Source: Rodentolepis nana
Lineage: Eukaryota; Platyhelminthes; Cestoda; Cyclophyllidea; Hymenolepididae
DNA: 64,000 nt
Direction: 5' to 3'
NCBI GenBank assembly: GCA_900617975.1
Contig: UZAE01012026.1
Span: forward strand, 1-64,000
The translations under genes were made by a program, and so were the position numbers. Position 1 is the first letter of the stretch. Each line of letters starts with the position of its first letter. A model generated the notes under the pieces. It ran no database searches. It saw only the letters and a program-made list of their open reading frames with translations, and was not told the DNA's origin. Shown piece after piece: positions 32,901 through 56,924 of this stretch.

Positions 32901-35278
32901 AATAGTACTAGTAGAAGCCTGCAAACAAGAACAGAAATGGTTTTAGGTAGTCATAGAGGCAAACCTATGTCTATTTGGCAAGGTTGAAACCGGAGATGAT
33001 GGTGTAGAGTCACAAGTTTAGAGGGATTGTAGTGTAGTTTATTCTGTTTCAAACAATATACTTTCTTCTTTCTGTTCACCAACAGTTAGACTACCAGTTA
33101 TTAGAAAAGTGCTTTGGTGAGCTCTGTGACTTACCTGGTCTGAGATCAGTAAAGCTTCGCACTCTGAACAATGGTGATGTCTGCATAAAGTAAATAGCAT
33201 AGAGCATTAGTAGGGAGTAGTTTCAACTTTCCTCATTAGAAAAGCGTGTGCTAAAGAGTTAACATGCATCAAAAGTTAGCTCGCTTATGAGGTTGATAGG
33301 GGTTAAGATGTAAGCTAATTTGAAACGTGCCTTGTTCTTTCCTCTGGTATTAAATTTGTGATGCTGATGGAAGTTCTTCAAGAACGCTCTATTAAAAAAA
33401 TGAATAAAAATATGAAAGACGTATTATGAAGTCTTCATAAGCACTGCTCTGGAACTCGGTTAAGCAATTAAATTGTTTGGTAATGGCTATGTTGGTAAGC
33501 ATCTTGAAGCAGTTGAGATGTTGAATGCCCTGAACTTTATCTTACCGGTTGACGAATATTTCCCCATCGCCAAGATGTATCTCTTCACCATCACTGTAGC
33601 TGACATTGGTAGAGTTACTATAAGAATACCCCTGATACTTCCTTCGAGACTTTGATCTATAAATGTAAGAATTACTACATAACCACAATCACTCGGCAAG
33701 CTTTTATCCCAACTCAATCGTTCACAACAAATACTAAACCGAAATTTTAACACCTTGTTGCAATAGGATAAACCCGAAAGATTTCCGATTTTGCAAAAAA
33801 ATTGTCTGGAGTTGTATCTGGAGAGTAGTTGATCCCAACAAAGAAAAGGCTCAAATTTAAACAGCAGCTACTGAAAAGGTCGTCTCAGACACCGATAAAT
33901 CAAGCAAATCGATTAAAAATGCAGACGTTGTACTCACATCGTATGCAACGGAATTTTCAATGGAACGTCTATTTTTACTACAAATAACTTACTCAAAACG
34001 CTTTGTTGGCAAGATTTGATAAAGATATAAACAAAACTTTAAATTAATCGTATAGATGATACAATCGACAAGTGACGTACTTTGGAGACTGGCTTCGAGT
34101 GCCTTGTTTACGGATTTCAGAATGAGGATGATTTTGAACTCGCTGAATAGGTGCTCCAGCGCTCCGATTTAGGCTGTGAAAGTAAATGATTAAGATAACT
34201 ATGATTTCACTAAAATTTTACATTAACTGAAGTATAAAAATCGAAAAACTTTATAAAGGTTTTAGATGACTCGATTTCCGTATTTAGTTTAAAGGTACTA
34301 AAAGTGGGGAGGAGTGGGATGGGATAGGTGGAACTGGACAGAATGTATTTTCACTGGCTCTCGTTCCTCCATAGAGATGAAATAAGGTCAATGCATCAGT
34401 GAAGAAGTTTTATGAATTCTAACTGATGTAACATTTGCCTATCAAATGGATTTCCGAGGAATTTGCTTTAGAATAAATCCGTATCCTCGTCAGGTGAAAT
34501 AAAAAACGAGGACAACACTAACATGCTTTCTTAGATCAAATTATTACGTCTTTTTTTACAATTTCTTGTTTTCAGGCAAGATTTTCTATAATTTGTCCTT
34601 TATCACCTTGATAAATACCAGTAGGTCACTTAAGGTGTATTTTAACCAAGTGACCTGATTCCGATAGGGTTCTCTTGCTTGTGCAGGGCACTGCGCACAA
34701 ATACTAAGTTGACTGTTTGTTTAATAATAATCACCGTTGGAATTGGCTTTATCAGAAGAACAAATGGTAGAAATAACATCCCTTAATCCTATAATGATTT
34801 TCTATATTTCATTTCATCTGTTTTGAAAATTGTTACAATTTTTGACTCTGACTTTTTAGCAATCTTTCAAAATTACAAAAATGAATCAAATAAAGTAAAT
34901 ATTGTGAAGATACTTGGAAGAATATCTTCGCATAAAAGCTGTCCACTTTAATTCTACCGCAGGTGAAAAAGAAGTAGTTGGAGGAACAGATTCCATCTTC
35001 TGGGTTGATTGCATGAGATTATAATTATGCAAATGCGGAATAAAAAGCACTGAGAGATAGGACACAGCACTGCAAACTGCTATATCTGATTGTCTGAAAT
35101 CATGGCAATACTAGTAATTTTTCATGTCAAATGGTAGTAATTTATGAATTCTTTGAAATAATTGGAACATAATAATGCTAGCAAATTTAAAAGGCGCTGA
35201 TTCTGTTAGTAACTACAATATCGTGATGCAATTAAAAAAAAACAAACGGGAAAAGTCAGGTGGCATTTGAAAACTTAC

Positions 35279-35332
35279 CGGAAATTTTCAGGAATCTCTC
35301 TGCGCGTTGGGCTGGCGGAAACGGAACATCGT
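35279..35332 (-). CDS. Candidate 54-nt exon, phase 2-2
   Basis: Flanked by a strong acceptor (ATCTGCTGTTTCAG) and a strong donor (CCG|GTAAGT). Its length is divisible by three and it is open in the phase used by the neighbouring minus-strand gene, giving CSVSASPTRREIPENF. It would follow the 24-nt candidate at 35610. If real, the gene at 36640-55670 has a longer isoform that continues past its apparent stop. The phase 1 frame is also open, so the reading is not unique. Confidence 0.4.
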
Positions 35333-36761: not shown

Positions 36762-39700
36762 CTAAGAGTTTGCATCAAATAGGTTAAAATTTACGCACCC
36801 CATTTGCTTTTGCTGTTGATATGCGAATTCTTTGTGGGCCTGAGGTTGATGTGGCTGATAGCGTGGATTCTGTTGTTGAGTAAGGAAGCGAGGGTGGTGT
36901 TTAGCTCGTAGACCCCGTCTTGTGTATGGAGGAAGAGGACTCTTGGATTTTCTCCGTGCACTCTTCATCGCTTTACTATGACACAATTTAGAGGCATAAC
37001 ATGATGTCAGCAAGATGAATTACAGCATCACTTTGTGCCGAAGACTTACTTTTTCTTGGGCTTAGCTTCGTAATTGATGGGCTCAATTCTGATTATAGTT
37101 GATGGGCTACGGGAAGGTCGTTTACTTTCTTTTACTGGAGAATCAATTGAATTGCTGAGGCTGATAGAGGTGCTGGAACTACTTGAACTGCTTAGACTCC
37201 TATTCTTTCTGGTCCGTCCCCGTCCACTTGATGAACTGCTCGTGGAACTACTGGTTGTGCTGCTGCTTGTGCTTGAACTACTACTACTACTAAAAATAAA
37301 GTGAGGTATAAAACCTCTGTTTAAAAAATTATTAACCTCAAATAAATTTAAGAATATATAGCACCTATAAAATAAGACCTTTTATATAAAACTGGTCTGC
37401 ATTAATATTGCATGTCAAATAAACATTGATAAAATTCAAAATATAATCCATATATCAATGCAGAAGTATATATACTTAAGTATATCATTTTCTGCTTACA
37501 TATAATAAGATTAAAGCTATATTGGCGCTAATATTAGATATTCAAAATCCTTCAAATAAAAGGCAATTTGCCAAATTGATTTTTTAAGGGAATTAAATAC
37601 TTGTGTGCTGACCTTGAACTAGATCGTCGAGACTCGAATCCAGCTTTTATGTCCATACCAGCGGGTTTCATAACGATACTATGAATAAAACAGCACACGA
37701 TTATCTCAAATCTTTTATTTTAAAAAAAACGCGCACTCTGGTGAGGAAAGCTGCCAAATAATAGAATAATTGACTGTTAAGCTGCTCTTAACCGATCTGA
37801 AGTTTTTTCCACAGCATGCAAGTTAAAAAAACACAGAAAAGTTTGATAAAAATTGCCTGAGTTTACCCAAATGGAATTGTGCTATAGATGAATGGTTAGA
37901 ATCATTAGAAAGCGCAATTATTTCGTTAGGTAAAGTTAAAGAAATATGAACTACGTGAATTGTGGTAGTTTTCCACGCGTCGGTGAGCGTTTTTGATCTT
38001 GAACAAGATACATTGGCTTCAATTTGCTATATAAAATGCACAAACATACATTACTGGAATTGTTGGTCATCTACAAAGCCAATACTGTTACTATCTTTCC
38101 ATTAATTTAAGCAATAGTCGTCCATTCTACTACTTCTCTTGCCGCAGTTCACTTAAACACACTACCCTTATACTAAGGGGTCTTTTAAATTTTTTCCTTT
38201 ATTTTCTATCGTTTTTATTTATAATTTTTACATATTAGCACACTAAAAACTGCGTTTGAATACCATCTCACGTTTATTGGCCATTTTCTTACTTCTAACC
38301 ATTAGTTACTGATCATGCATACGCGTATAAACTCGAGTGCCATTACGTCGTAAAATATTGCCCATGCATAACAAGGTAATTAAATCTATTGGGTGGTCGT
38401 TTAATTCTCTTACCATTTGAAGTAAATCATTAATTATATTAAAATGTTGTCTGCTAAGTATAACAGGCACAAAATTCTAAATTAAAATTGTAAGTGAGGT
38501 ATAGTATTATTCATCTTCATCGTATTTGTTTATGAGAGGGTTCCTCACGGAGCAAAATGTCTTTATTCTACTTCAATGGCTTTCCGGACAAAGTTCTTTT
38601 TATGGTATCATCAATAATATTGTTTATTGGAATGTTATATACCCATGTTTAAAGGTGGTAACACCTTCTTCGAGAAAAGAAGAAACATATAAGAGATGCT
38701 ATTGTAACTAAAACACCTAGTAAATTAGTATGGTTGGCCAAAGAAACTACTTCAGAGGCACCAATGAAGGTTGATATCATGACCCACGACTTTGTAAACT
38801 TACACTTGGACCACAGCACCGCTGACAAAATTACTATGAAAAATCTTTCGTCACACTATCTGAATTAATGTGTTTCCTACGTGGCTTGGATTTTGAATCT
38901 GTACTGTCTTTATCGAACAAAGCATCACAATATATATATATATATATATATATGTTAGAAGTAATCGGTTGCCAAAGCACTATTTTAATGCAACGGCGAG
39001 CTAATTCCACCCTTCTTACCTTTGATGGCCTCGGGACTTCTTTTGCGAAGACATACCCTTAGAAGGATGATTAACAACCACATCATCGGAGGATGATGAG
39101 GATAAGGAGGAGGTTGGCGAGGATGAAATTTGTCTCCTTGGACTTTATGAAGAAAAAGGATGAAAATTATTTCAAGTCAATTCTGTAAAACTGCGATTTC
39201 GTCTAATATATTGATAGTAGAGAGTTGTAAGACAACTTCAAATAAATTGATTTGAGACCTGTGAATGAGTCCCCTCTATTCATTCACAACCGGGGTTGAG
39301 CTAACTTGTACTCAATTCTTTTATATGTGATAGGCAGCGTCACTTTTCATATACCGATAATTACTTCATAGATAAGTGTCATTTAAAATTAGATTTTTAG
39401 CGCTATTTGGTTTATAAACATGAATTATGAGGAAATAATCATAGAATGTTAAGTTGAAATCCATTAAATCAATAAACTCAATGTAACTAACGGAAAATGT
39501 GAAGAAATAATACTGAAATCGAGTTATTACGCACCGAGAAGGTTGGTGATAATCCGAAGAAATATCGATCGACTCTTCGGGGCTAAAATATTTCCTATCA
39601 AAAAAGATAATATGTGATTGCGAATTAATTTTAGCAAAATAAAAGCAAAGCTGCCAGTTCTATTTTTTAGCGTTGAATTTCTTAATTCACTGAACAGCAT

Positions 39701-42700
39701 AGAAAAGGAAGCGTAAATAAAACCAAATAGTATTAAATTTCGTGGAAAAAGAAATGGAAATAAAAAAGAAATAATGATTTCTAGGTGAAGATGAATCTAC
39801 CTTTTTATCGAAAATGACACGGGTGCTCATGGTGATATTAATATTTCAGATGATAGAGTGTTGAATACTTAATTTAAATGAGAATGGAGAAAGCCTGTTT
39901 TATTGCAAAGGAAAAATTTAAGCCTAGTATAAGCAAATATAATTATTGAATCAAGCGGTTCATCAACCCCAATTAAGTAAAACAAATCCCATTATGTATT
40001 AATTAATGAGTGTATGTGCCCAAAAACATCAAATGAACTCAATTGATCAATGTAGATGGAAAGCAGTTAGGTTTAGTTCGATGTAGATTTTCGATTTCTT
40101 ACACATGAAAGGGCGAAGAAGCAGAACTCATATGTATCCTTTTGTTGCCCATCTCGAAAATATTATTACTTTTTCTTCCATTCTGCCTGTTCTTGCAAAT
40201 CGAAAGAAAATGGGAAAATTTGAAAAAAATAATAATAAGATTTCATCTACCAGAGGAAAGAATAGCTAGAGCTATTGAAAGGTTAATCATAGTGAAATAT
40301 GTGTTAATTTGCTTACAAACTCAAGCAGACTATCTTTATTCATCAAGTTAATTACCTAATTACCTTGTTTAGTAAATGTTAAGGTTAAACTTTTCATATA
40401 ATTTTAAAAATACGTACTCGGGTGGCATTGAGTAATCCCGGTGTTTTTTGTGAGAATTCCTTGGCATTTTCTTTCCAGTACGAGTCGCAGATGAGTTTTT
40501 CTTTGACCTTGTAATTTTTATTAAGAATCGCGAATAAATTATAACCAATCTCATAATTTTAAAAATCATTAAATATGAAAATGATATAAAACGTTAATTT
40601 TAAGCTTGAAATCGTATTTGTATCATATATTTCCAAATCATTTAATGCGACGAAATTCACAATCGCTTTTCTATAGTTCTGAGAAAATCATCAATTTTGC
40701 CCGTGATAAACTAATATTATAAATAATTTATGAGCATTTCTTGGCAATGTAAAATGAAGATTTTCAATTAATAGCTAGTTAGTGTTTCGACTGTTGACAT
40801 CCAAAGTACCCATATTGAAATTTAACAACTTTACAAATTGGCAGTCTCTATAATTGAGTTGAATTTAATGCTTATATTTTATAATAACAATATAATTTTG
40901 TTGAAAAAATGGTTATTTTGATAGTTAAAATTACAAGCATCCGTATATTATTTGAAATAGAAACCATCCATATAATAATTCAAACGAAGCTTTCAACACT
41001 TTTCTAAGCATTTATATAAACAAAAAATTCAAATGAGACAAATATTTACGTATTATTGATGTGAAAATCATGATATCTTAAAGTTTATCAACTGTTAATA
41101 GTCACATTAAATGACTTACAAATTAATTACTCCAGCAGGATTTGAACAAACTACTGATCACTTTCGGCAACAGTGACACTTTAATCAACAAAGAAGTCAT
41201 TCGAATTACTTTCTTCAGCGTTAACTAATTGGCTCGAGTAATCGCCACGCTGCACGAATGGGTATGAAGGAACCTACAGTTCAACTACACCCCACACAAG
41301 CTCTTTAATGAAATTAGACAACCTAACGTCTTGTCATATCAAAAATATCCTTTATTCAAATTATGCGTATAATTACATTAATAATTAAGATAATTTGAAC
41401 GATGGAGCAACAAAATTTATCGTACCGCATAGTCAATCCCCTACCACTCACTTTAAATCAATATCTCAACCAGAACTTTGTATCCCTCTGCCAAAGCGCT
41501 ACTCAAAAGCAGTTTCGTTTTGTTTTTCTCATAAACTGCATGATTAGCATTTTGAGCGCAAATATGTTTTTGCTAGATCTTGCCAAATTATTAACTTTAT
41601 ATACTTTCAAGTTGAGATTATGACGATGGAGTCTGATCGAAAGACCAAATCTGTGGTTATAACTAATGAAGCACGTAGAGATTTTCTCTAAGAAATAGCT
41701 TAAATTTCATTTGATTATGCATCTTCCACAGTACCATATTTACCCGAATATACGTATATAAGTACCATTTCTTAAAGTATTCTTGAAAAAAAATAAAGCT
41801 GGGACAAATCCAAAGCAAGCCGTCTCTGAAATTTATCAATATTTAAAGCATAATTAGTTTAATGAAATATGACTCAACTTATAAAATACGAAATAATGAG
41901 AGATAGATTTATTCTAATGTAGTTGAGAAAAGTTACTTTGATTTCATTAAACATCAAGGCATTTGATTTCTTCAGCCACTTATTTTCTTAATATTATATA
42001 TTAAATACATATTGCTTATATTAAAATATACCTCAATTTCTCGATATTCACATCTATTTGTTTGACTTTCTTTATCATGGAAGATTATAAAATATTTTTT
42101 GATTCTGTCTAAGAGCCAATAGGCGTATAAAATGTTTTAAAATTAAGTCCCGTACAATAAAGCCAGTTTAAAATGTTTTCCGCTTTATTTCGATATGAGT
42201 AACATCTAAAGTACATTTCGCGTCAAAACCTACCACCGAAGAATTACTTACCTTCTTGATTTCTTCAAGGGATCAAAATTAATCGGCTCAGTCTTTATTT
42301 GACGCTTGATCTCCTGTTTACTAGGCATTTGAACCTCAATTTCTCGAATGAATGGTTGGTCTTCTGGTTTCTTAACGTCAGATACATCGGTCAAGCTGCA
42401 AAAATTGAAAATGCATAATTGAATGCAAGTACTCGTCAGAACAATATAAATGCTCTTCATCCAAACACCAAAGCATTGTTTTAAATTTCTTTATTTTGTT
42501 TTTTAAAGATGCTTATGAAGATTCATACCTTGGGTATACTTGTCCATTTGTGTATTGCCTAAGAAACAACGCGATACGAGAGCAAGCAAAGCGAATTACC
42601 AGAGACACACCATACTATTAGGCTTTTACATTTTATCCTTCGCACACTTACGATTCTTGATTAGTATTATTTTCACCTCGTATGTCGACGGATGTCATTG

Positions 42701-45700
42701 AAAGGTTTTCTTCCAAAGTATCAGCCCTAAATAATCGCATTAAATACCCATAATTCTATTTAAAAATTTATTAAGCTGATGGCAAAAGGGACTCTGAAAA
42801 GATGAACAATAGTGTCAAAACTGTATGCTAAAGTATAATATGTGAATCTAACCTGGTATGGTCGTTTACAAAGATATTACTTAATGGTGCTCATTTGCTA
42901 ATTAATTATTTTTACATTTTGGTTTAAATTCTATTATTGCAGTACAACCAATTGCATCTTAGTATTAATGAAATTACTTGATGGGAAGGATGTATTTTTA
43001 CTAAATAGTATTTAACAAATTAGTGCAAGTTTGATTCCATATTGAAACCGTCGTATTAATTATATTGACTGGTTAGCAAGTAGAGCTCACTACTATATCG
43101 CTAAAAGTACACGGTATGTATTATACTACTTTATTTTCTTACTACTTCAGCTAATTAAAAACGTTTTGCATTATAGCTTCACTTTCATATAGATCAATTC
43201 TATTCCAATCTGATAACACTTTATAATTTTTGAAAAATTGCGAGGCTGCCACTGCAGGGAGAAGTTCTAATCTTTACTACTAATATTTTATTAAGTAGAA
43301 AGGTGAATTGTTGCAATTAACACAAATTCAATTTAACTATCTAAATTGTTAATCATAGTTCTAATCCTTGGATGTGAAAGCTCAATTCTTTTAACGAATT
43401 AAATCTGCATTTAAAGAATTGCTTATATTTTAGTATTATTAGTCAAATCAATAATGTGTATTTACTTATCTTAGAAATTCTTGTGGATATAGTGCAACCT
43501 ATTATCAAAATCTCGATGTCTATTATCCTTTGAATGCGATTTTAAGTGCTTTTTCCAGAAAATAAGCTCTAATGTAGAGCATTTTAAAGTTTTTTCTGTG
43601 GTAAAAGATTATTCAGTTTAATATTTGGGCTAAATTAAGGAGGAATTTCTTTTGTAGTGAATAATATTTAACTAAGCGCATTACTTTTATGCGGTTAGGA
43701 GTTCCGATCGATTCAAGAAATCTGAAAAGTTAATTCGAAAGGATATTACGAAATCTGAATAGAACCGCCTCTCAAATACGTATTCAATCGAAAAGAATGA
43801 AAATAAAATCAATATTTACAATTAGAGTTCTCGGAAATGTCGATGAATAAATATCATAACTATGGGCTCATACACGATTTCTTCATATTCCAAATAGTTG
43901 AAAATTCAACAGAATACTACTTTTGTCACTGAAAACCGTCAACTGGTATCATTTTAGAAAGTCAGTCATTTATGATAATATAAACTCATGGTTAAACATG
44001 ATACAAGCATCAATCATTGATTTTAAAATCAATTATGAAAGCAGACATTTTGATTAACTTTTGAACCTCCGATAATTAGTAAACTGATTAATTACTACTG
44101 AGTGTTAATAGCGTCAACAAAAAAGTTTTTGACCTGCAATTTTTTCGAACGCTTTGTCATGCGTTACATAAGTCATTAAATAATTATTTAAATTTAAGGT
44201 AGCTGATTAATGGTTCCACAATGAAAGACATTGGATATCATTCATTTTTTATTTTGAAAAATCTGCATATCGAAATTATTATGCCTTCAATTCATATGCT
44301 TAACTGCAACGAATGTACAGATTTATAATAGTAAAATACTAGCCTCCCTGAGTTTGAAGCTAAATAACTATTCGCTAAATAAGATATTTCATTAACCTAT
44401 CTGGCTTAACTATGGTAAGCTTTACCATAAAACGACAAAGGTGTTATTATACTCTCTGAGCAAGTCTATGCAGAAAAATCGATCCATGCCTTAAACTACT
44501 ATTGACCTCGGTTTACTGACAATTGAGAAAAGATAGTTTTTTTCTCACATAAAAGCAGGCTTATACAACTCAGAACAGATGCAACGCAAATGGTTTATGC
44601 TAAAATGGATGCGATTTAGACGGTGAATCATAATAAAAAATTTATTCCGCGCCAGCTGAAAACTAGCCATAATTAAAAGGTGAATACTTTGTGCCATCGA
44701 CTTTGCGCATGTGCGTATGAAGTGAGAAGCATTGATGAGCAAAGAATTGTAATTGCGCAGAAAATTCACGAACTGAAGGGTCTCCCATGTCCTATAGAAT
44801 GTTTTTAACACCTATGTGAAACTAAAATCTATTAAGAGATTGCATCTTCATGTGCTCCTTTATCATAATTTGGATATTCAGCAAAGCAAGGATGTTGTGC
44901 ATTTATTCGGTAGCTTATTATACAACTAAACTTGTTGCCCAAAGTAATAAAGCATTTAAATGTATGCAGAATCTTACCTAGCCAAGACATCTGAAACCGA
45001 ATCCTCTTTCATAGGATTTTGGAATGCGTCGTTGCTGCGACTTAATTAGATATGAATGAGTAAAAATTCATTATATGATCTTAATAAGAAAAGAATTTCA
45101 TTTAATTAGAGACGTACGCTCTTTGTTCCACTTGTTTGAAAAATCCTGAGGTATCGGAGGATGATAGGCGCGCATTCAAACTAAAAGTTGTTTAATTTGA
45201 TAAAATTGTACAAACGAGAGCAAAGCGTTGAGAAGCCAACTTATCTAAACATACTCAATGGTTCCAGGTGCAATGCCAATTGTCGCAGGCATCTGAGTTG
45301 TTGGTGTCAATTCATAAGGTTGACTACCATTATCACTAAAATTAAAATTAAATATTGAGAAAGCTTTTTGTCGTTTTTATTAAAAATATTTTGAGTGAGC
45401 TCTGTTAGATTAATATCAAACTAACCGCTCTTAAATATTATGAAAATTTAATAAAATATTATGGCCAGCAGCTTAGTTTAATTAGATTATGTAAAAAATA
45501 ATCTGCTTAGAAAAGAAAAGAAATCTATAAAAATGAGCTGAGGAGCGTTGACGCTTGAAGAAGTTAAATGTACTTCTGAGTAAAAAGTAAATAAAAAAGT
45601 CATAGAAAGCCTGCGATTCACCAAAAAATATTCAATTCCTTTCTTTTAGATGATTTTATTAGAGGATAAGTAAAAAAATAACATCCCTACCGCGTCCAAA

Positions 45701-48700
45701 ACTCTTGCCATGGACTGTAAGATATTGATCGAACAATTCAAAGTTTGACCTACATTATCGTTGATAGCACAGAGGATATTGACGTGTTGCTTCCTTTTGT
45801 CTATTCAAGATGCATTAACTTCCATTTCAATTATCATATTTAATAAAACCGCCCTTTCAATATTACTGAAATTCATCTCTCCATTTACTTTCGTCATCAA
45901 TGAGTACCAGACTTGGTTTACGCCACTTGAACATGGCGTTCTTTGGAAAGGTAGTGAAAGTCAAGGATGACAAGAACCAGGACCAATAAAATATGACATT
46001 TATGCTGCAAAAAATGAAATAAACATTACTTCTTTATAGTTCACCATTCTTTCCACAGATTAGTTGCCGTACGCATCCCAACTGTTCCCGCTTTTGATTA
46101 GTATTTATTAATAAAGCACTTAACAATACTGCCTCTTATATAATTAACTGACTATCATGATAAGAAATCAAATTCAAAGTTGTTAACTCGCCTAAGTATT
46201 GAAGGTGTTCGTTCTTTAGTTCGAAGCAATGATTTTTTAGGTTCTTTGGATTCTTGCTTGCTAAAAAAATATGAAAAATATTAAGTGGGTCCAAGCCATT
46301 ATGCTCCTAGTCTAGGCAACAATATAAGCCGACTAAAGGGCGGAAGGCACTATCATAAATTCAATTAATTATAAATGGCGACAATAATTAATTATTGAAT
46401 ATTATCTAAATCTAATTAAGCTCTTTAATTAGTGCATAATCATCGTAAGATGTCATATTTTTCATTAGTGATGGGGATTTTTAAGCGGAAGAACTAATTT
46501 TGAAATTGAATCACGGCCTTCTTACAGTGATTTGACAGAGCTTTCCTCGTTAAATCGACTGTTTCTCATCAAAAACGAATCAGAAGATTTTGACGAACTA
46601 AAAAATAAAAATTCGGAAAGTTGATTGTACTTTTGTGCATTTAAACGGCAGCAAAATCTCCATAATAGTCATTAGTGAAATTATTGATAACTAAGTTATA
46701 GTATGAAATCAACTTATTTAAATACTAATAAACATTTACTAAAATAATTTTTAATGGAAATCAATTCACAAATTTATTGTGATTAGTTATAGTTTAAGAT
46801 ATTTGTATTAAGATCTTATTAAACTATTAAAATGTAAATTAATTCAGTAGATTATTTTGATTGGGGCAGTTCACTGCAATCTTTCATTTCCTTTATGAAA
46901 ATTAATTTCAACGTCATCGACTTATGCCACTCCCATTATTAGTTAAAATTAACTAATCGACTTGGATACGTCTCACTGTGGTGAGCATCGAAATCCGGAT
47001 TTCTGATCATGCAGACACGGCGTCAGTCTTCTGATGGTTATGTTTATTTTCCATATCCAACATGAAATATTTAAGATCAATCCGGTAGCTTCGAATAACC
47101 CTATCATGTAAATGTAAATTAAAATATCATCAAGTTTTTGCATAAAATCAATAAAGGTTAAAACACATTGAAAGAGCTCAGTCGTAAGCAGAACTTTTTT
47201 TGGTTGAGTAATTAAATTCAAGCTGTCGATAATATGTGTAAAAGTCCTCTTCTAGACTATGACAAGCAATCGATACGATTAAAAAATCCTTGTGATGGGT
47301 GTGCAGAGATAATTGGTGACGCCTCCACTTTATCCAGGCACTTTTTTCGTCATTTTCTTTATGAATAAACATAAGTGGGTAATCTCGTTTATTTCATGTA
47401 ACTATGAGTAAACTTGAAACTTACAAAGAATTTAATTAAAACATAGAAGAAATGGATTTCTGGATTTGCAATAAGGAGGTCTTCGAATGTAAATTAAAAT
47501 GTTAAAAGCATCTACGAGATCTGTGGGAGTTTAGGGCTTTTAAATCCTAATCACGTTGCATAAAGGTCGTATTTTTTACTTTACGTGTTAATTTCAATAA
47601 AATTCACAAATCAACAAATAGTAAAGGCAAAATAAGTTTTTTTCTTTTATTTCAAAAATTTGCTTGGGTTACCCCTACTGATATTATCTTTTGAAACTAC
47701 CAAATTATCGCCACATGGGGGAATGGTTTTTATTTCTTTCGACTAAAGCCAAATACTCGAGGCGTAATTGAAAGTATTTTACGTAATCCAGAAAATTCCA
47801 CTTGTGAGGTTCGTTAGCTCATTTGAGTTATACAGTCTTCAATCGTTGTTAACTTCCTTTCAAGAAAACAATATTGCTTCCCCCTTTTCTCTCGTCGACT
47901 CAAAGATAAAATAAATTCAAAATCTTCTGCCCACTTGTCAAACCCATTTCACACCCCTATACTCAATTTGCTAAGCTCTAGTCTGAAGAGCTATTAAGAG
48001 TCATTAAGCTTGGCACCAGAAATCTGGCGTTTTACTCAAAAACACTAGCATACACGTGTGCCAATGTGAGTGCTTGAAAATAATGAACCGGTTTTTTATT
48101 CGAAGTTAGTATTTTATTATGCACCTGAAGCAATATTTTCTGGGTTTTAACCATTACAAATGGAGAGCAAACAACGATCAAAGTGCTCCATTGTTGAAAA
48201 GCAACATTTATGAAGATTTTCCGGTATTTCAATACGGGCCAAATTACCGTCCCGTGAAGATCAGCAGAAAGGGCAATTTTATTGCTTATATCATTATAGT
48301 TAATAACATCAAGAACCATCAAGCAGAACTCAAGATTACGCGTTCCGTAGCGAAGTTCAAGGTAGTTTAAGAGACTACATGAAAACGTTCAAAATGCAAA
48401 TATAAATCCATGCAATGTGTTCTTTTATTCCTCTGTAATGTAACTGAAATATGTATTTATGAAGTTATTTTGTTTATAAAATAAGGGACTAGTTCACTTC
48501 CTGCTCGCATTTTATACCGCGTCTTCATCGACGAAGCAGGGGTAAAGTCGATAGGTCTAATAAGTTAGAGATTTCGAACTAGTATCAAATACGCATTACT
48601 AAATTAGAATATTGATCAAACACAGTCAATAATGGAGAGAAATGTGGATTTCTGTTTTTTAACTTCGGTCCAAAAAAATACGAACATTTGTTACTTGATA

Positions 48701-51700
48701 AATTAATGTCAGATCTGAGCGTATTCTAACTGATAACAAAACAATCAATCACAAAGACCCATGGGGCAAATTTCGGCTCCCTCAGGCTCCATATTATCAT
48801 TATTTGTCAATTCCATTGAATGATTTTTTATTTAAAATGAAGTAGGAAGTTGCTTAAGCGGAGGCGCGATAAGTTATTGGCATTTATGTTCATAAAACAG
48901 GATAAATATCGGGACTGCTGATAAATACACTGAACGTTTATTCTTATGACTTTAAACATGGGATAGCCCTATGCTTTCCCCAAATCATCAGTGTAAAGCA
49001 TTCCAAGCTCATAAATAAACTAACTTCAATTAAATTATGGCGAAATAGCTTCAAGCGCTGTGGAAGGAACTAGGACGCTACAGATGAGCGTTAATTCGAA
49101 TAACAATAAAAAACCAGAATTATATTATAAATATCGTTCTAGGAAGAAAAACTGACGTTTGCTTCGGTTGCCCAGTTAGTTGTGTTGCTCCCTGAGACTT
49201 CGCCATGGCTTCTTTTTCACGCTGTTGGAAGAAGGTGAGATTTGCTTGGTACCTATTTCAAAATTTAAAAAAACTAATTTAATGCTTTGCTATGCTCTTT
49301 TCCATAAATCGATTTTTATTTTCTACGACATAAAAATCAAAACCCCAAAAAGAGAAGAGTGAAATTGCAGGCTTTCTTTGCTAATGTGTTGTCATTCTCC
49401 TCTTATTTTCTTTATTATTACATTTTATACTTGACAGATTTAATATTGTTTAAGTTATTAATTTTGCGATACGATGTGAACTTAGCCTTTAAATTTTATG
49501 GGATTTGAATAACTATTGCTATTTTGGTTTAGTACTTTTTATCTTCTTACATAGTCAATAAAATCTTGAAAGCATTTAGAGCATCAATTTTTGCAAACCA
49601 AATTTGTTGAACTCCGTTTAGCTATTCTAGAAGAAATCAATTTCTACCATCGCCATTGTTATCATAACGGGTTAAATATGAAAACGTTGACCCACTGTAG
49701 CATATTGGATTAGAGCCTTCAAAGTTCTTTAGGTAAATGTCTTCTTAACCGCAAAAAAATATCATTTAAACTTTGAGATAAGTTTTGAAAATGCGCCGGT
49801 TAATCTAAGATAACGACGATCTTAAATATAATATCCAAAATCTAGATAATCTAAACTTGAGAAAACGTCTATTCTTCATTTATTCTTTTTGACATTCTCA
49901 TTTTTAGCAAGTGAGTGCCTTTATGATTCGACTTACCCTAAATTCAGAAAAGTTATTGAAATTTTTTGTTACCACAAAGGGGTGATTTCAAAATGTAATA
50001 TATGTCAAGTAAATATATGTAAATAACCAATGAACTGTATTTCATCTAAACCCACCCAAAAGGTCGTTGTTCCTCCGAATCACTTGAATCAGGTGGTATT
50101 CTATAAAAAAAGAAATATTTTTTATAAATGTTAAATCGTGAATTACATACATCCTTAAGGGAAAAAAATTATAAAAAATATGCAGCATATCATAATATGC
50201 AAACAAATATTATTTCTTCTTGAGGACCCGAAGTAGCCAAAACAGAGTATTTAACCAATTACTAAATATGCCTTGAACACAGTGAAGGTAATAGTCCAGA
50301 GGGATCTTTGTCATATTGTTCCCACAAACAATATTTGGAGTAACAATAACAGAATGCTTTTCCGATGGGTCTACATTGGATTTATGAATAAAATTATGAG
50401 TGCATTTTGTAAATAATCATTTCTGACTTTAAAATTCCAACCAAATCTTAAAGCAAAAATCAGTTCCGATATTTATTACTCTCTTTAACTATTAATAATT
50501 GCTATTTTCTTAAAGGTATTGATTTTTTGAGCCAATAGAAATTATTTGGATTTCAATGCCATTTGTCACTCACTCAAAAATATTTTCACAAAGTTAGTTC
50601 ATTGCAAAATTTGGTTTTACTTCCTAAAGATGGAATGATAAGGAATTGTACTGAGAAAGTGAGAGGGGAAGCAAATCTTAGAACTGCGTTATTGCGGAGT
50701 TGCCAAATGCCTTGGTCAAGCTTTAAAAAAAGTTACTCTAAACATCTTATTTTCCAAATTGGGCTGAGTGATAGACTCGCCTCCATGTGGTGTATCTTGG
50801 GCAACCTGTACACAAAGGGCAAAAAATCTATAAACAGGCAGTTGAATTCTGACTTTCAACACCATGACCCTACTCTGTGTCATATTCCACTACGTCCACA
50901 ATACTCACCTCGCCTTTTTGTGCCTTTGTGTCTGTCTCTTTTTCATTTATGAATCATTCCTCTTTCCCCTCCTCCTGTCGAATTTGTCACATTTTGATGT
51001 TTCTCCCCTCTGTAAAGCACGACGTCAACTAAAGAGCTAATGATAACTAGCATAAAGCCTGCCATTTGATATAATATTAATATTATTATTATTAAAATTC
51101 TTTCGAATTTATGGATCCAACACAGACTAGAATGAAACCAATGGAATATTCAAAACTCTAGTTTTCATGACTTAAACATGCAAAAATTCAACGTCTTTTG
51201 CTTAAACTACAAAAAAATTCACCTCAAAGAAGCCAATTTAGATGCAGTCAAGGGTAATATGGCAGTTGCGCACAAATTTTCCCAAAAAGAACAGCAGTGA
51301 TTTTGCAACATCGAAGTGGTAGCCTTTCAGCAGGAAATACAAGAGCCCAATTTGGCATTAAATTATTAAAAGTTGATTCACAATCCTGAAAAATCATCCA
51401 GGCTACACCTAGTCAACAAATGAGAGGCAGTAGTATGCGCGTTTCTCAGTATTACGGGTTTAAGGGAATGCCGGTGACTTAGTTTCCCCCCCCCTCCCTT
51501 AACTTCAAACCCAAAATTTGAACAGGTAGAGTATTTATCGCTTTATCCTAATAAATAAGCAATGTATTTTAAGGTAGAACTCAACAAATAAAAAATCAAA
51601 CATCGTAACTACTGAACCAATAAAAAACACATCGTAATACGATATTCGGTTTTTATGTAAATGGTCAAGTTAGTAAACCAGACTCCTAGTTAGGAAATAA

Positions 51701-54700
51701 AGCAATGATGATTTTACAATTACTGTGATTAGATTAGAGGTTATTTAATATTAGATAATGCGATTATTTAATGCTGCTTACTTAGGCATAGCAATCGATT
51801 CCATAATTGGAGGAATAGGAGTCGGTTGTTCAGGGATCTCTGGCATGGAACGTGGTGTTGAGGTCTTTAATGGCTGACCAGGCGAACTATGAAGGTTCGA
51901 ATAGGGGCTTGAAGAGCTTGTAAATCCTTTGCCGTTTCCTCCATAGGATCGAAGGGATTGGTAATTTCCAGAATTGAAGGGACCTGATAGACGACTTCTA
52001 AAGATGAAAAGATTCATTTATGTAATTATCATTAGTTTGTATTGTCAGTCAAACATTGATAGCATTGAAAAGACCATGCTTTCACGTCATTGACTTAAAC
52101 ACTATTTTACAGACCGAAAGATTAGCAAGAGCTTTTCTGCCTTTATATCCTCTTTTTAAGCCATTTCAAAGAAGTGCCATAAATCAGAATGCTCTCCTCA
52201 ATATTACCGAATAATCCAAATATTTGTTCACAATTTAAAGTATTTGGCTTTTACATTAATAAACGAACCCCCAGCCATATTTGAAGCAAAAATATTTACA
52301 GCGCCCATCTTTGATAACTGTTCAGTATCATTGTGGCATTCTCATCCTATTTATAAGTCAAACTTAATCGCCGCAGTGTACACTGATAGGTATCGAACCT
52401 TTGACTTCTATGCGAACGAGTATGCTAGCCTGGGTGCCGACAGCGTCAATTTGCAAGCTCGGACACTGTTATAGGGAATAAAACAGCAAAAACTTTTGAG
52501 TACCCAGATAATAGAGAATAAACTTAGAAATAGATGTTTCAAACTGTGTTGAAACCCATTTAGCTATGGTTATAACAAATATAGTCTTTTCTTAATTTTC
52601 TTTCAGGCAGAAAGTAATAGTTTTGCTCATTAGATGTGTTTAACAAATGCAGTGGTAATCTTAGATGTACGAACTTAATGTGGGTCTTTTGGGCATTGAA
52701 ACAGGCATTCCATCCACTAATTTGACAAAATCTAAACTTGAAAACGATATTGAGTTCGTAAGTGATTGATTTGGTTTAGTGTCACATAATTCGGCAAAAA
52801 AGTTCAAGAGAATTAAAAAATTTGCTCTACAAAAGGCTTGGCCTTATAGCAAGATTAATGTTTTGAAATTACTGAAACCGAGTGTAGACCTTCTTCTTTG
52901 GTCGAAAAAATTTGAAATGGATCGTGAATGATAAATTGAGAAAGTCAAAATTTACCACAAATTTCACACAACAGCTTTGAAATGTTAACTCAAAACATGA
53001 ACACTAAATTTTTGGAGGCGACAAAATGGCTTAATCAATAGCATTTAGTAGCAATTGACGACATACTTTTCATAAAGTAACCACTGATTTCGATCATTTT
53101 TCCGGCGCAATAAACAAAATTATTAATTGTGAAAATCTTCACATTCAAATTATATTTTTATAAAGTTCAGTATTTTATATGAGTGCGTTTCCCGCTTTTG
53201 TCAAAAACCCGCAGATTGTTTTCATTTGCGTCGTATTTGTTTTAGTAGAATTCCTGAGAAATTAGGCCTCATTTAATTATCTTTTTTCTTAAAGTAAGAA
53301 GAGGAAGTTCGAAAAGAGATATTGAAAATCTCGACTTTGCCGATAACAAGATTAGAAGCCGATTTCTCATGATACCTTCCAGAAAATTAAAAATTCAGCC
53401 TGTGGTGGCACACATTTTTCTGATGAATAAAAACTGTCTAATTTGAGTAACATGCATTTTATTTGAAGATTCAATTAAAGGACAGCGTTATGACAGTGAT
53501 TCTCTTGTATGTATTTAAATAATGATTTTTAATTAGCCCTACTTAAATTTACAAGTAAAACGATTGAAAATACCAAACCATACTTTTATTTATGACATAT
53601 TTGTGAAAGAATTTTAACTTATTAAAATTTTGAGCGCAGACAAATGAATGCAAACAAAATTTTAACTTATTTAAATGTATTTCCTTTAACGAGATTAGCT
53701 ATTGTGGAACAGAATATTGCGAACACTTCCTCTTTTTTAATTCTTAACAGGTGTTCACCTTAATAATAAATGTAAAACGTTCCATGTGGCTCATTTTATT
53801 ATCACATTTCAACCTAATTTAAATTAACTCTTTAGTTGGGAACCAAAATCAGTCCTCAAAAAAATAATTGCAAAAGACTTCAATTCCTTCGCATTGGGCC
53901 ATATTTCTTCATTGAGTTTTTAATACGATGATTTCGGTTTTTACCCCATTTTATAAATTTAAAAAAAGCAGAAGAAAATTGTTTTTATCTTGAACAAAGA
54001 CGATTTCCTCGTGTTGACCAATGACGTAATATTTTGCCGATATCAATTGTAAAATTTATAGTTAATATACTGCAACAAATCGTATTATTCCGTTGAGATA
54101 TGAAGTTTGGGGAGTTGTTTAACATAATAAATTACTGAAAAGCATGGAGAAAGGCGCATTAGTGCAAAGATTACATTGAGACATAGTTCATCTTAATCAC
54201 TGGCAAAAAAACATTAAAAAGTTTGAACAAAATGGTCAAATTTGATCTCAATACTAATTTCTCCGCGGTTTTCCGAAAGTCCACCCAACCGAATAAGTGC
54301 CCATGGGAGGTTATTTGGAGTTAAAAGTTATAACGCAGTCTAAGAGCTTTTCTCTATTAAGGACTGAAGCTTGACTCCCCCCACCCTCCTAGCGAGATAA
54401 ATCATTCCGCAAATTTTACTTCTGCACCATCGCCCACGGGCGCTGTTCCAAAAAATAGTTTCATGAAATGTCATTTACCGTTTAGCCAACTTGGACGGAT
54501 TTTCGGAAAATCTAGATGCATTTCAGATTTAACGTAAATTGTTAGGTTTGTGAATTGTATGATTATTTTCGAACTCAATGGATTAATTTAAAAAATTCAT
54601 AATGTAATCAAATAAATTTGCTAAAAATAGCTTACGTTTGAGGAGTGAGCCGTGTAGGGATTTCAGCATTGAGAGAGCTAATCGATTCAGTAATAGGAAA

Positions 54701-55670
54701 TTCAGGAAATTCGGCCGTTGATGGCATTGGAACATATTTAGGAGGAGTTAATCCAACTCCACTTTTGGATATAGTCGGCATTTGTGGTTCATAGGAATTA
54801 AGTGGATTTGAATGGGCTTGAGAGAACCTAGCACCTATAGAAGGCACATTTAAAGATTCACCACTAATCGCTCCAGTCTTCATGACGCTCCTATCAATAA
54901 TAAAATTAAAAGAATGAGTAATTCATTGTATCTAACGTTGTTAACTATGCATTCTTTCAAATAGATACCTCGGAGGTTTATCAAGACTGCCTGTCTTTGA
55001 GAGTTCGTTTAATTGCTCATGGAGGTTAACAGTTTGACCCAATTCCTCTGCTGTCTAATGAAGTCATCAATGAAATCAAAACTAAAACTGAAAATACCCG
55101 TTCAAGAAGTTGAATTATTTGTTGTTCAATAGTGGTTTCGTCGAAGTTGACAGAATTTAATCCACTTTCACAGCCTTGACAATCATTTAATAAGTTGCGG
55201 TAATGAGGTATAGTTGAGGTTATATCCAAACCAACACAAGTTTGCATAACGGATTTAAGTCTTCTTTGTACATGCTGTAACTTAGAAGTTATCTAAATTA
55301 TTGCTATGAAATTTATAAATTTCTGAATACGTTGGCGCCTTGTGCTGATTCATACGTTGATCGAAGCCAAGTTGAGAGCTGGCTGTATACGTATAAGTAG
55401 AAATCATGCTCTATCGTTTTCCATATTATGGACTTTGCAAAATTGTAAGCAGTTCGAAGGTTATCGGCTTTAATTTCCTGAAAAATTGGTCATTAATATA
55501 TTCGGTATACCCATTGAAGAAGTGTTTTGTGAAATGTAACCACTTTTTCAGCTTCATCTGATAGCGTTATCAGCTGATTTAGCAATGATTGTAGTGAATA
55601 TACGAGGTCTAAACTTTTTTATTTGTGAGTTAATTGTTATACCATCCATATCGTCCTTCAGGCCAGCCAT
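36762..55670 (-). CDS. 21-exon gene: helical N-terminus, Ser/Pro-rich middle, basic RS-like tail
   Basis: Family not recognised. Exons (minus, high to low): 55670-55643, 55608-55511, 55477-55331, 55292-55098, 55045-54969, 54890-54636, 51997-51782, 50100-50056, 46260-46192, 45335-45255, 45180-45118, 45040-44978, 42726-42652, 42558-42529, 42395-42252, 40507-40418, 39582-39535, 39142-39020, 37678-37613, 37289-37050, 36975-36762. They sum to 2367 nt, 788 aa, ending in TAG. Residues 1-181 look alpha-helical, possibly coiled coil (MAGLKDDMDDLVYSLQSLLN). Residues about 182-340 are rich in Pro, Ser and Thr. About 340-530 is charged, with one IKTEP motif near residue 515 that fits a SUMO-acceptor consensus. 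About 530-788 is basic and Ser-rich, with polyserine near 637-700 and RRKSKSP. No signal peptide or membrane segment is seen, so a nuclear role is my guess. The last 16 introns are all phase 2. Missing symmetric exons in the big introns would not break the frame and cannot be excluded. Confidence 0.75.
37050..37289 (-). CDS. Polyserine exon of the 21-exon gene
   Basis: A 240-nt phase 2-2 exon whose first half is a Ser/Thr run encoded by mixed AGT/AGC/TCA/TCC/ACC codons, interrupted by GRGRTRKNRS. Its end reads IIRIEPINYEAKPKK, which resembles IKTEPINFDPLKKSRR at the end of exon 42395-42252. The mixed codons indicate selection for the amino acids rather than simple trinucleotide slippage. Confidence 0.7.
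38930..38953 (+). repeat. (AT)n microsatellite
   Basis: About 12 AT units inside the intron between exons 39142-39020 and 37678-37613. Confidence 0.95.
42529..42558 (-). CDS. 30-nt micro-exon of the 21-exon gene
   Basis: Thirty nucleotides between acceptor TTGTTTCTTAG and donor CCAAG|GTATGA, encoding QYTNGQVYP in phase 2-2. It fits the frame on both sides (ES before, SLTD after) and can be skipped without a frameshift. Confidence 0.65.
46192..46260 (-). CDS. 69-nt exon with a probable GC donor
   Basis: Acceptor ATTTTTTTAG, translation KQESKEPKKSLLRTKERTPS. In phase 2 the only way to stay in frame with the next exon is to end at CTTAG and use GCGAGT as donor; the nearby GT (CGA|GTTAAC) would leave phase 0 and break the frame. 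Confidence 0.6.
50762..51092 (+). repeat. Dispersed repeat, full single-arm copy
   Basis: Head (CCTCCATGTGGTG), TCTATAAACAGGCAGTTGA block, one CCACAATACTCACCTCGCC unit, GTGTCTGTCTC block, GTCAACTAAAGAGCTAATGA block, GCCATTTGATAT block and a TTATTATTATT tail. About 330 bp, inserted in an intron of the 21-exon gene in the opposite orientation to transcription. It shows the likely complete unit length of the family. Confidence 0.85.
51486..51494 (+). repeat. Poly-C run of 9
   Basis: C9 followed by TCCC in an intron; length may be unreliable. Confidence 0.8.
54636..54890 (-). CDS. Large Pro/Ser-rich exon of the 21-exon gene
   Basis: The largest exon, 255 nt, phase 2-2, translating from SVMKTGAISGESLNVPS to LTPQ. 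It shares a loose pattern with the next exon 51997-51782: a Tyr/Ser/Gly-rich first half and a Pro-rich second half ending TESISS or MESIAMP. That suggests an old exon duplication. It contains FPEFPITESI, a Pro/Phe motif of the kind used for peptide docking, but no named motif. Confidence 0.7.
54969..55670 (-). CDS. Compact 5' part of the 21-exon gene
   Basis: Five exons are packed into 702 bp with introns of 34, 33, 38 and 52 nt (donors GTATAA, GTATAC, GTATTC, GTATTT). The start chosen is the ATG at 55670-55668, which opens the frame MAGLKDDMD; G|AC then joins exon 2. Phases run 1, 0, 0, 0. The translation has regularly spaced Leu/Ile/Val (LVYSLQSLLNQLITL, KLQHVQRRLKSVMQT, EQQIIQLLER), suggesting helical bundles. 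Exon 3 could instead end at an earlier GTATAC, which would shorten the protein by 20 codons. Confidence 0.7.
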
Positions 55671-56924
55671 CGCACCAAAAGCAATTTCAAAATTGTATCA
55701 ATTAATTCCAAGGTCACAACTGGTGCACCTAAATATAGTTCATAACTTATACACTAAACTTTGTATAGATTATTTCTTAAAGTTGTAAACTAGCACAATT
55801 TATAAAGCATTTCTGGCTTTATATCTTTAAAAACTCAGTAATTACGCAAATCGGTAAATAATTATGCAATCAGAATAGCATAATATTCTATTTTCAGCAC
55901 TATTTTAATTCTCATAACAAATGAGATTGTACGATGTTATTATGTTTTCTCATAACAATAGTATGACATGCTTTGTTACTTATAAGATTCAAAATAAAGA
56001 ACACAATAAATCACTATTTTTTTATTTTCATTATCCTTATTTGATTTTTGCCGAATCACATATCGAAACGGTTTTAAAGTGCCTAAAAAGTATTAACCTT
56101 TAAAAATAAATGAACCTTGTTACATATATATAAATCTGCTTATTTATATTGCAGTAATGGCTTATCAATCTCACTGTTATTACCTAGTAATATTTTTCAC
56201 TGCGTTGTTCACGATCGGAACTTTAACTATTCTCTCCGAATTTAAGTTGTGTTGTACTTAACTATTATAGAGACTGCCCATTCCAACTGAGCAATCACTC
56301 GAAAAATTTCTTGCGGTCCGTACCACACTATGTGATGCGGGCATGGTGGAAAATTTGGAAAAGTTAAAAACAAAGAACCTAGACAGCAGAAATGGAGATA
56401 TATGAAAAGTTGTGTGTTTAGAGAAACTTATATCCAGAAATTTTGGCAAAAGTATGCTCTCTTTTCTATTTGCTTGTTTAGCAGGCGAGAATCAGTTGAA
56501 AGGTAAATTTGACCTTATTTTCATTAGAATGGGGAATAATAATTCACTGGGGACCACCGAATGTTAACTAATTTAACCGATAAGACATCTGATTAATTCA
56601 ACGTCTCCAAATTCCAGAGCAACAATTTAATATTCAATTTTGGACATAAAAAAGGTTAAATATGCTGATTATGTATTCCCAGTCCATTGAATTCGCGTTT
56701 GTAGATTAGAAATTCTCAAGAGAGATGGATTTATAAAATTAATGCAGTTATGTAGATTGACAGCCATGCTTTGACATCAGTTTCTATTGAACCATGCATA
56801 CTGATCCGTAGAAATTTCAATTCATATCCACGTGACCACTTCGTCATCACTTTTCACGTGATCACGTCACCTCTAGACGGGTGAATAAAGGGCTTTCACG
56901 AAGTAACGAATCCTTAATGGAATC
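55671..56924. promoter_or_regulatory. Divergent intergenic spacer, probable bidirectional promoter region
   Basis: 1254 bp separates the start codons of two divergent genes. The only features seen are the CACGTG boxes near the right end and AT-rich sequence. Short frames inside it lack usable starts with splice continuity and are judged non-coding. Confidence 0.45.
56829..56870 (+). promoter_or_regulatory. Two CACGTG E-boxes and a TCACGTCA site
   Basis: Palindromic CACGTG occurs at 56829-56834 and 56855-56860, followed within a few bases by ATCACGTCAC, which resembles a CRE half site. All lie 55-100 bp upstream of the ATG at 56925. In AT-rich DNA two copies of a GC-containing palindrome 26 bp apart are unlikely by chance. 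bHLH-ZIP and bZIP factors are the usual readers of such sites; the actual factor is unknown. Confidence 0.5.

What the first reader, a model, noticed from the sequence alone, without database searches (positions are those of the whole stretch)
36762..54890. Sixteen consecutive phase-2 introns and fifteen symmetric exons in one gene
Every exon from 54890 down to the terminal exon starts with one base completing a codon and ends with two, so any exon can be skipped or added without a frameshift. Exon lengths run 255, 216, 45, 69, 81, 63, 63, 75, 30, 144, 90, 48, 123, 66, 240. This is the exon logic of flatworm micro-exon genes, but the product looks intracellular, basic and disordered rather than a small secreted protein. 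It could be a large combinatorial isoform system or a product of serial exon duplication.
Basis: seen in the sequence. Interest (0 to 1): 0.75.

Follow-up and report, generated by a model that had tools for sequence, protein, structure and literature searches.

The report
Tapeworm ESCRT-III-like gene, 26 frame-safe exons
A tapeworm gene joins a head that resembles a membrane-remodelling protein (ESCRT-III, CHMP1-like) to a long floppy tail cut into about 26 exons that all break the reading frame at the same place, so tail pieces can be gained, lost or skipped without wrecking the protein.

Summary
The phase pattern is real and larger than reported. In the tapeworm Rodentolepis nana (public protein P0001 is this gene) I model 34 coding exons, minus strand, 55670-32908. 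Introns 5-31 are 27 consecutive phase-2 introns bounding 26 symmetric exons (two tentative); the other six introns are phase 1,0,0,0 and 0,1. Chance does not explain it: 8 of 30 control introns in this genome are phase 2, and splice-site composition does not favour phase 2.

It is not a micro-exon gene and shows no sign of exon duplication. Exons 1-5 encode a helical domain whose only significant PDB sequence match is ESCRT-III CHMP1A; structural support is weaker. The gene is single-copy, found in five tapeworms, with an ~890-residue basic, Ser-rich, apparently disordered tail. Two tail exons are cleanly absent from some species' public proteins, as expected for in-frame cassettes. Likely mechanism (inferred): an ESCRT-III-like module whose tail evolved by exon gain and loss inside phase-2 introns. 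No transcripts were available, so alternative splicing is not shown.

The parts
55643..55670 (-). Exon 1 (28 nt), start ATG; followed by a phase-1 intron of 34 nt
   Evidence: Alignment to M. corti and S. solidus N-termini
55098..55608 (-). Exons 2-4 (55608-55511, 55477-55331, 55274-55098), followed by phase-0 introns; with exon 5 the ESCRT-III/CHMP1-like helical domain
   Evidence: 69-71% identity to M. corti and E. granulosus; CHMP1A profile match; Foldseek's five best entries are CHMP1B or CHMP1B-IST1 filaments
54969..55054 (-). Exon 5 (86 nt), end of the CHMP1-like domain; ends in phase 2 (first phase-2 intron follows)
54636..54890 (-). Exon 6 (255 nt), first symmetric 2-2 exon
   Evidence: junctions present in P0001
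51782..51997 (-). Exon 7 (216 nt), 2-2
   Evidence: tblastn E 2e-8 with E. granulosus, 4e-6 with T. crassiceps
50056..50100 (-). Exon 8 (45 nt), 2-2
   Evidence: M. corti 6/14 and T. crassiceps 8/14 identical residues; both junctions in P0001
49157..49252 (-).
46526..46597 (-). Exon 10 (72 nt), 2-2, tentative
   Evidence: splice sites and frame only; gap in M. corti and T. crassiceps, 3/23 identical in E. granulosus
46192..46260 (-). Exon 11 (69 nt), 2-2, GC donor, tentative
   Evidence: splice sites and frame only; no counterpart
44978..45335 (-). Exons 12-14 (45335-45255, 45180-45118, 45040-44978; 81, 63, 63 nt), 2-2
42252..42726 (-). Exons 15-17 (42726-42652, 42558-42529, 42395-42252; 75, 30, 144 nt), 2-2; exon 16 is a 30-nt micro-exon absent from the E. 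granulosus protein
40418..40507 (-). Exon 18 (90 nt), 2-2
   Evidence: tblastn E 0.002 with T. crassiceps
40103..40186 (-). Exon 19 (84 nt), 2-2 cassette found here; present in the T. crassiceps and (weakly) S. solidus proteins, absent from the M. corti and annotated R. nana proteins
   Evidence: tblastn E 2.5e-5 with T. crassiceps, 4.7 with S. solidus
39535..39594 (-). Exon 20 (60 nt; reader: 48), 2-2
   Evidence: tblastn E 5e-4 with T. crassiceps
39020..39142 (-). Exon 21 (123 nt), 2-2
   Evidence: exon present in P0001
37955..38026 (-).
   Evidence: weak tblastn (M. corti E 0.35, T. crassiceps 2.1) plus colinear position and clean join to exon 23
37613..37678 (-). Exon 23 (66 nt), 2-2
37050..37289 (-). 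Exon 24 (240 nt), 2-2, poly-serine stretch
   Evidence: tblastn E 1e-18 with T. crassiceps (low-complexity filter off)
36799..36975 (-).
   Evidence: donor gtgcgt follows 36799; junction to exon 26 in P0001
35415..35771 (-). Exons 26-28 (35771-35703, 35633-35610, 35498-35415; 69, 24, 84 nt), 2-2; Cys/His-rich segment CEPEFETC..C..HVCxKC; exon 27 is a 24-nt micro-exon
35279..35332 (-). Exon 29 (54 nt), 2-2
   Evidence: strong donor; junctions in P0001; low identity to other species
34081..34173 (-). Exon 30 (93 nt), 2-2
33546..33656 (-). Exon 31 (111 nt), last symmetric 2-2 exon
   Evidence: tblastn E 0.003 with T. crassiceps
32908..33388 (-). Exons 32-34 (33388-33331 with GC donor, 33180-33135, 32918-32908), intron phases 0 and 1; C-terminus ...VRSxxDLR; the last 11-nt exon is the least certain
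   Evidence: alignment to M. corti and T. crassiceps C-termini

Best explanation
This is a single-copy tapeworm gene for a diverged ESCRT-III-like protein of the CHMP1 type: five exons encode a helical filament-subunit-like head, and 26 class 2-2 exons plus three closing exons encode a long disordered, basic, Ser-rich tail with a Cys/His-rich segment. The tail most likely grew by repeated gain (and loss) of exons inside phase-2 introns: once the first tail intron was phase 2, only 2-2 exons could be added or dropped without a frameshift, so the phase propagated itself. Shown: gene model, phases, conservation in five tapeworms, single copy, a CHMP1 sequence signal, exon-level differences between species' public proteins. 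Inferred: that the head folds and assembles like ESCRT-III, that the tail recruits partners through short motifs in place of the usual C-terminal MIT-binding helix, and that cassette splicing tunes which motifs are present.
For: Phases and exon counts; colinear homologues in M. corti, E. granulosus, T. crassiceps, S. solidus. CHMP1 link: a profile of 3 N-termini has CHMP1A as its only PDB match below E 1, at 1.8e-4, colinear 7-176 to 1-171; with S. solidus added 1.2e-3, next an unrelated chain at 0.53; of 7 R. nana Snf7 ORFs only the canonical CHMP1 stands above 700 shuffled decoys, 14.7 against at most 4.7 bits; in reverse 3 of 4 tapeworm heads stand above 800 decoys. AlphaFold2's best model has a long helical hairpin plus shorter helices and Foldseek's 5 best entries are all CHMP1B or CHMP1B-IST1 filaments. 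Exon turnover: exon 19 conserved in R. nana DNA and T. crassiceps, missing from the M. corti protein at the exon 18/20 join; exon 16 missing from the E. granulosus protein. Composition does not force phase 2; genome control 8 of 30 phase 2. Single locus.
Against: Pfam Snf7 does not match at E up to 10. Profile-profile comparison (hhalign) with CHMP1 gives a probability of only 6% (E 0.006, first 69 residues, 26% identity) and 1% with R. nana CHMP1 alone. Only one of five AlphaFold2 models is confident (72; the others 42-47). Foldseek has no hit at E 0.001 or better (best 0.036, TM 0.41-0.42 for the top five, rmsd about 40 A), and a second aligner ties F-BAR with ESCRT-III rows. The S. solidus head is not above the decoys. 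Helix 1 is acidic (net -4 in four species) where CHMP1 is basic (+5, +2) and a strict MIM1 motif is absent, so any ESCRT-III function is changed or lost. No transcript data; exon absences rest on public protein predictions and may be annotation gaps. Exon birth inside phase-2 introns is inferred, not observed.
Confidence: 0.62

Rival explanations
1. Large combinatorial isoform generator: the 26 cassettes are actively and combinatorially spliced to make many tail variants.
For: All 26 exons are frame-neutral; two are absent from some species' public proteins; skipped exons are said to lie mostly in disordered regions (reviewer comment in PMC6335736, passages).
Against: No transcripts available; absences may be annotation gaps; frame neutrality is expected without regulation if exons were gained inside phase-2 introns.
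Confidence: 0.3
2. Serial tandem exon duplication produced the array, as in repeat genes.
For: Same-phase arrays often arise this way (general knowledge); exons 9 and 13 share a loose FFxxxE motif.
Against: Old duplications could have decayed beyond detection.
Confidence: 0.1
3. Intron insertion at proto-splice sites in an Arg/Ser-rich protein gives phase 2 by composition (AG|G splits Arg, AG|C/T splits Ser).
For: Patthy's argument that a phase-2 AG/G intron splits an Arg codon (PMC8001218, passages); the tail is Ser/Arg-rich.
Against: Only 7 of 27 phase-2 junctions follow AG, and AG|G sites in the tail are spread 10/10/9 over phases 0/1/2.
Confidence: 0.07
4. A flatworm micro-exon gene (MEG).
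For: Symmetric exons; two micro-exons of 24 and 30 nt.
Against: No signal-peptide-like start, 1068 aa, conserved head, 24 of 26 symmetric exons above 36 nt; MEGs are described as secreted and schistosome-restricted (PMC10526429, PMC8293314, passages).
Confidence: 0.02
5. The helical head is not ESCRT-III but another elongated helical bundle (for example BAR-like).
Against: The only significant PDB sequence match is CHMP1A, colinear from its first residue; Foldseek's five best entries are CHMP1B(-IST1) filaments.
Confidence: 0.2

Closest known systems
CHMP1A/CHMP1B (ESCRT-III, Snf7 family)
   Same: Helical head of about 175 residues, colinear sequence similarity from residue 1, predicted long hairpin plus short helices
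   Different: Not recognised by Pfam Snf7; acidic helix 1 instead of basic; no strict MIM1 motif; about 890-residue tail instead of a short one; a canonical CHMP1-like gene exists separately in the same genome (C4078)
Successive symmetric exons in disordered proteins (Schad, Kalmar and Tompa 2013, seen as cited in PMC4838654; collagen genes)
   Same: Many adjacent exons of one phase coding disordered sequence
   Different: Phase 2, non-repetitive exons of very unequal length (24-255 nt), ESCRT-like host protein; collagen exons are repeats (general knowledge)
Class 1-1 module shuffling (Patthy, PMC8001218)
   Same: Symmetric exons inserted or lost in introns of matching phase
   Different: Class 2-2, no folded module seen; [quoted passage not shown]
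Schistosome micro-exon genes
   Same: Symmetric short exons that can be skipped in frame
   Different: No secretion signal seen, large conserved protein, mostly ordinary exon sizes

Membership tests
ESCRT-III / Snf7 (CHMP1) | Match to the Snf7 Pfam profile | tested here: not met
   No Snf7 hit at E up to 10 for the R. nana (905-aa early model and 142-aa head), M. corti, E. granulosus and S. solidus proteins; T. crassiceps P0004 not scanned
ESCRT-III / Snf7 (CHMP1) | Sequence homology to CHMP1 over the core | tested here: met
   Profile to CHMP1A E 1.8e-4 and 1.2e-3, colinear; canonical R. nana CHMP1 the only one of 7 Snf7 ORFs above decoys. Weak by hhalign: 6%
ESCRT-III / Snf7 (CHMP1) | ESCRT-III fold | tested here: inconclusive
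ESCRT-III / Snf7 (CHMP1) | Basic helix 1 (role recalled) | tested here: not met
   Net -4 over the first 41 residues in four tapeworms against +5 (human CHMP1A) and +2 (R. nana CHMP1)
ESCRT-III / Snf7 (CHMP1) | C-terminal MIT-interacting motif | tested here: not met
   Strict MIM1 pattern (recalled) absent from all 6 sequences scanned, the R. nana model and P0001-P0005; other MIM types not tested
Micro-exon genes (MEG) | Symmetric exons | tested here: met
   26 consecutive
Micro-exon genes (MEG) | Mainly exons of 36 nt or less | tested here: not met
   2 of 26, median 78 nt
Micro-exon genes (MEG) | N-terminal signal peptide, small secreted protein | tested here: not met
   Start MAGLKDDMDDLVYSLQS has no hydrophobic leader (by inspection; no predictor run); 1068 aa
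Tandemly duplicated symmetric exon arrays | Recognisable similarity between exons | tested here: not met
Alternatively spliced cassette array | Transcripts with different exon sets | not testable with these tools
   No transcript data; two exon absences in public proteins only

The most novel reading that the evidence does not exclude
Tapeworms evolved their own ESCRT-III-type subunit whose partner-binding tail is a programmable array of about 26 frame-neutral, non-homologous class 2-2 exons, born one by one inside phase-2 introns and spliced combinatorially to retarget a membrane-remodelling (or, given the acidic head, membrane-free) filament protein.
Probability: 0.22. Interest if true: 0.78.

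Novelty: new variant of a known kind. Interest (0 to 1): 0.52.

Why it matters
One review says that the domain types used in animal exon shuffling were all found to be class 1-1, although class 2-2 would serve equally (PMC8001218, passages). A run of 27 phase-2 introns bounding 26 apparently unrelated exons in one disordered tail is a clean test case for how exon birth, reading frame and disorder interact, with orthologues in five tapeworms with which to date the exons. It also points to a CHMP1-like protein, found only in tapeworms in the three searches made here, with a changed charge pattern and a new tail.

Tried and rejected
Rejected: my first exon 21 (38903-38835), weak splice sites and no homologue, replaced by 38026-37955. 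My first borders of exons 2 and 3, corrected from M. corti. P0001's extra segments around exons 9-12 and 16: not seen in the other species. RBM22 similarity of the Cys/His segment: whole-sequence E 0.0041 but per-domain E 0.85, because the solved construct carries the stretch twice. The UniRef name 'SCA7 domain-containing' for P0002: no Pfam SCA7 match at E up to 10. C-terminal structure: no confident model. Duplication of exons 9 and 13: negative. Exon 19's clean absence from M. corti is read from the alignment; in the alignment the gap is placed differently. Literature: searches showed no description of this gene among the rows listed (at most 10 rows each, of up to 688 papers; openly licensed papers only). 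Of papers I saw listings with the start of the abstract, and passages of PMC10526429, PMC7259759, PMC8293314, PMC8001218, PMC6335736, PMC4838654 and PMC9477494; none was read whole. The DeMarco 2010 MEG paper is not held. No trematode homologue was found, but the protein search is word-based and capped. The bacterial-type promoter scan and the Rfam scan (no match) added nothing.
Full report
What the window is. A search with the predicted protein returns a Rodentolepis nana protein (P0001) whose shared exons are identical to the window, and homologues from Mesocestoides corti (P0002), Echinococcus granulosus (P0003), Taenia crassiceps (P0004) and Schistocephalus solidus (P0005). The window is the start of contig C2224 of a 107-Mb assembly. 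All five species are tapeworms.

The gene model. Reading the minus strand and checking each step against the homologues gives 34 coding exons from 55670 to 32908 and a protein of 1068 residues. Intron phases in order are 1,0,0,0, then 27 times 2, then 0,1. Exons 6-31 are therefore 26 symmetric exons, 24 to 255 nt long, median 78. Exons 26-34 are shared by homologues. Two exons, 10 and 11, rest on splice sites and frame only; without them the counts are 25 introns and 24 exons. Some others have only weak cross-species support (exons 22 and 29). Exons 11 and 32 use GC donors. The public prediction P0001 contains 16 of the 27 phase-2 junctions. Exon numbers here are those; searches used an earlier 33-exon model whose numbers differ after exon 18.

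Is it chance? A paper gives the usual ratio of phases 0:1:2 as near 5:3:2 (PMC7259759, passages). As a control in this genome I fitted introns between neighbouring exon hits of myosin and adaptin genes: 35 fitted, 5 dropped for a poor fit, 30 left: 19 phase 0, 3 phase 1, 8 phase 2. The tail is Ser/Arg-rich, which might favour phase 2 at AG|G sites, but AG|G sites in the tail are 10, 10 and 9 in phases 0, 1 and 2, AG|N sites are 73 of 174 in phase 2, and only 7 of the 27 phase-2 junctions follow AG. Even at p = 0.42 a run of 25 has p about 4e-10. The other six introns of the same gene include no phase 2.

What the head is. Exons 1-5 encode about 179 residues that are 58-71% identical between R. 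nana and three other tapeworms. A profile of three species finds one significant PDB sequence, CHMP1A, at E 1.8e-4, colinear from its first residue; with S. solidus added the value is 1.2e-3. Of seven R. nana Snf7 ORFs, only the canonical CHMP1 (C4078) scores above 700 shuffled decoys. In reverse, a CHMP1 profile ranks three of the four tapeworm heads above 800 decoys; S. solidus is the miss. Against this, hhalign gives a probability of only 6% and 1%, with very shallow profiles on both sides. AlphaFold2 on the M. corti head gives helices 2-44, 48-85, 92-109, 114-126, 142-159, 166-176 in its best model (pLDDT 72), but the other four models score 42-47. Foldseek's five best entries are all CHMP1B or CHMP1B-IST1 filaments, but at E 0.036 and worse, TM 0.41-0.42, and a second aligner ties ESCRT-III with F-BAR domains, so the fold alone does not decide. 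Pfam Snf7 is silent. Helix 1 carries net -4 in four tapeworm proteins against +5 in human CHMP1A and +2 in R. nana CHMP1, and no strict MIM1 motif is present. I therefore call it CHMP1-like and do not file it as a CHMP1. Only one locus matches in the genome.

What the tail is. In R. nana it is basic (133 Lys/Arg against 78 Asp/Glu) with 17% serine; the C-terminal 182 residues of the M. corti homologue have no confident fold. A Cys/His-rich segment over exons 26-28 (CEPEFETC ... HVCxKC) is conserved. Symmetric exons do not resemble one another more than chance: of 325 pairs, 2 have at most 1 of 200 shuffles reaching their score, about 3 expected, and the one suggestive motif pair fails a profile test. 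Tandem duplication is not supported, though very old duplications could be invisible.

Exon turnover. Searching the window with the homologues uncovered exon 19 (40186-40103) in what had been an intron: it matches T. crassiceps (E 2.5e-5 against the window alone) and weakly S. solidus (E 4.7), is flanked by phase-2 sites, and is missing from the M. corti and annotated R. nana proteins at the exon 18/20 join. The E. granulosus protein lacks exon 16. These are public predictions, so annotation gaps cannot be ruled out, but both are what frame-neutral cassettes would give.

How it most likely works. Shown: gene structure, phases, conservation, single copy, a CHMP1 sequence signal. Inferred: the first tail intron was phase 2; new exons arising in it and in its daughters could be kept only if 2-2, so the phase propagated; the disordered tail tolerates this. 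The head probably still associates with ESCRT-III-type partners, while the tail presents short motifs; splicing may select among them. The loss of the basic helix and of the usual tail motif suggests a changed role rather than ordinary membrane scission.

Relation to known things. Successive symmetric exons in disordered proteins are a known category (PMC4838654, passages, which cites Schad 2013 and traces much of the effect to collagen). [quoted passage not shown] Micro-exon genes are short, secreted and described as apparently restricted to schistosomes (PMC10526429, PMC8293314, passages), and this gene fails two of the three features tested. It is a new variant of a known kind.

Noticed in passing
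window 56907-59468 (+): Divergent open frame of 853 codons (stop to stop), Lys-rich and apparently intronless, 1.2 kb upstream of the gene; the frame from 56925 (847 aa) has no Pfam match.
   Followed up: partly
window 62682-63227 (+): ORF with a Mito_morph_reg (PF14972) match, E 1.2e-15.
   Followed up: no
window 931-1746, also about 50539-50952 and L011: Tandem array with units of about 40-42 bp; similar translated text occurs in an intron of the gene and in another contig, so probably a dispersed repeat.
   Followed up: partly
window 4861-5223 (-): Weak Sushi-repeat match, below the curated cut-off.
   Followed up: no
window 55642-54891 (-): The first five introns are tiny (33-78 nt) while tail introns reach 2.6 kb.
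   Followed up: no
P0001 (public R. nana protein): The public gene prediction lacks exons 1-3 and part of 4, has other sequence in place of exons 10, 11 and 16, lacks exons 19 and 22 and stops before the end of exon 31.
   Followed up: yes
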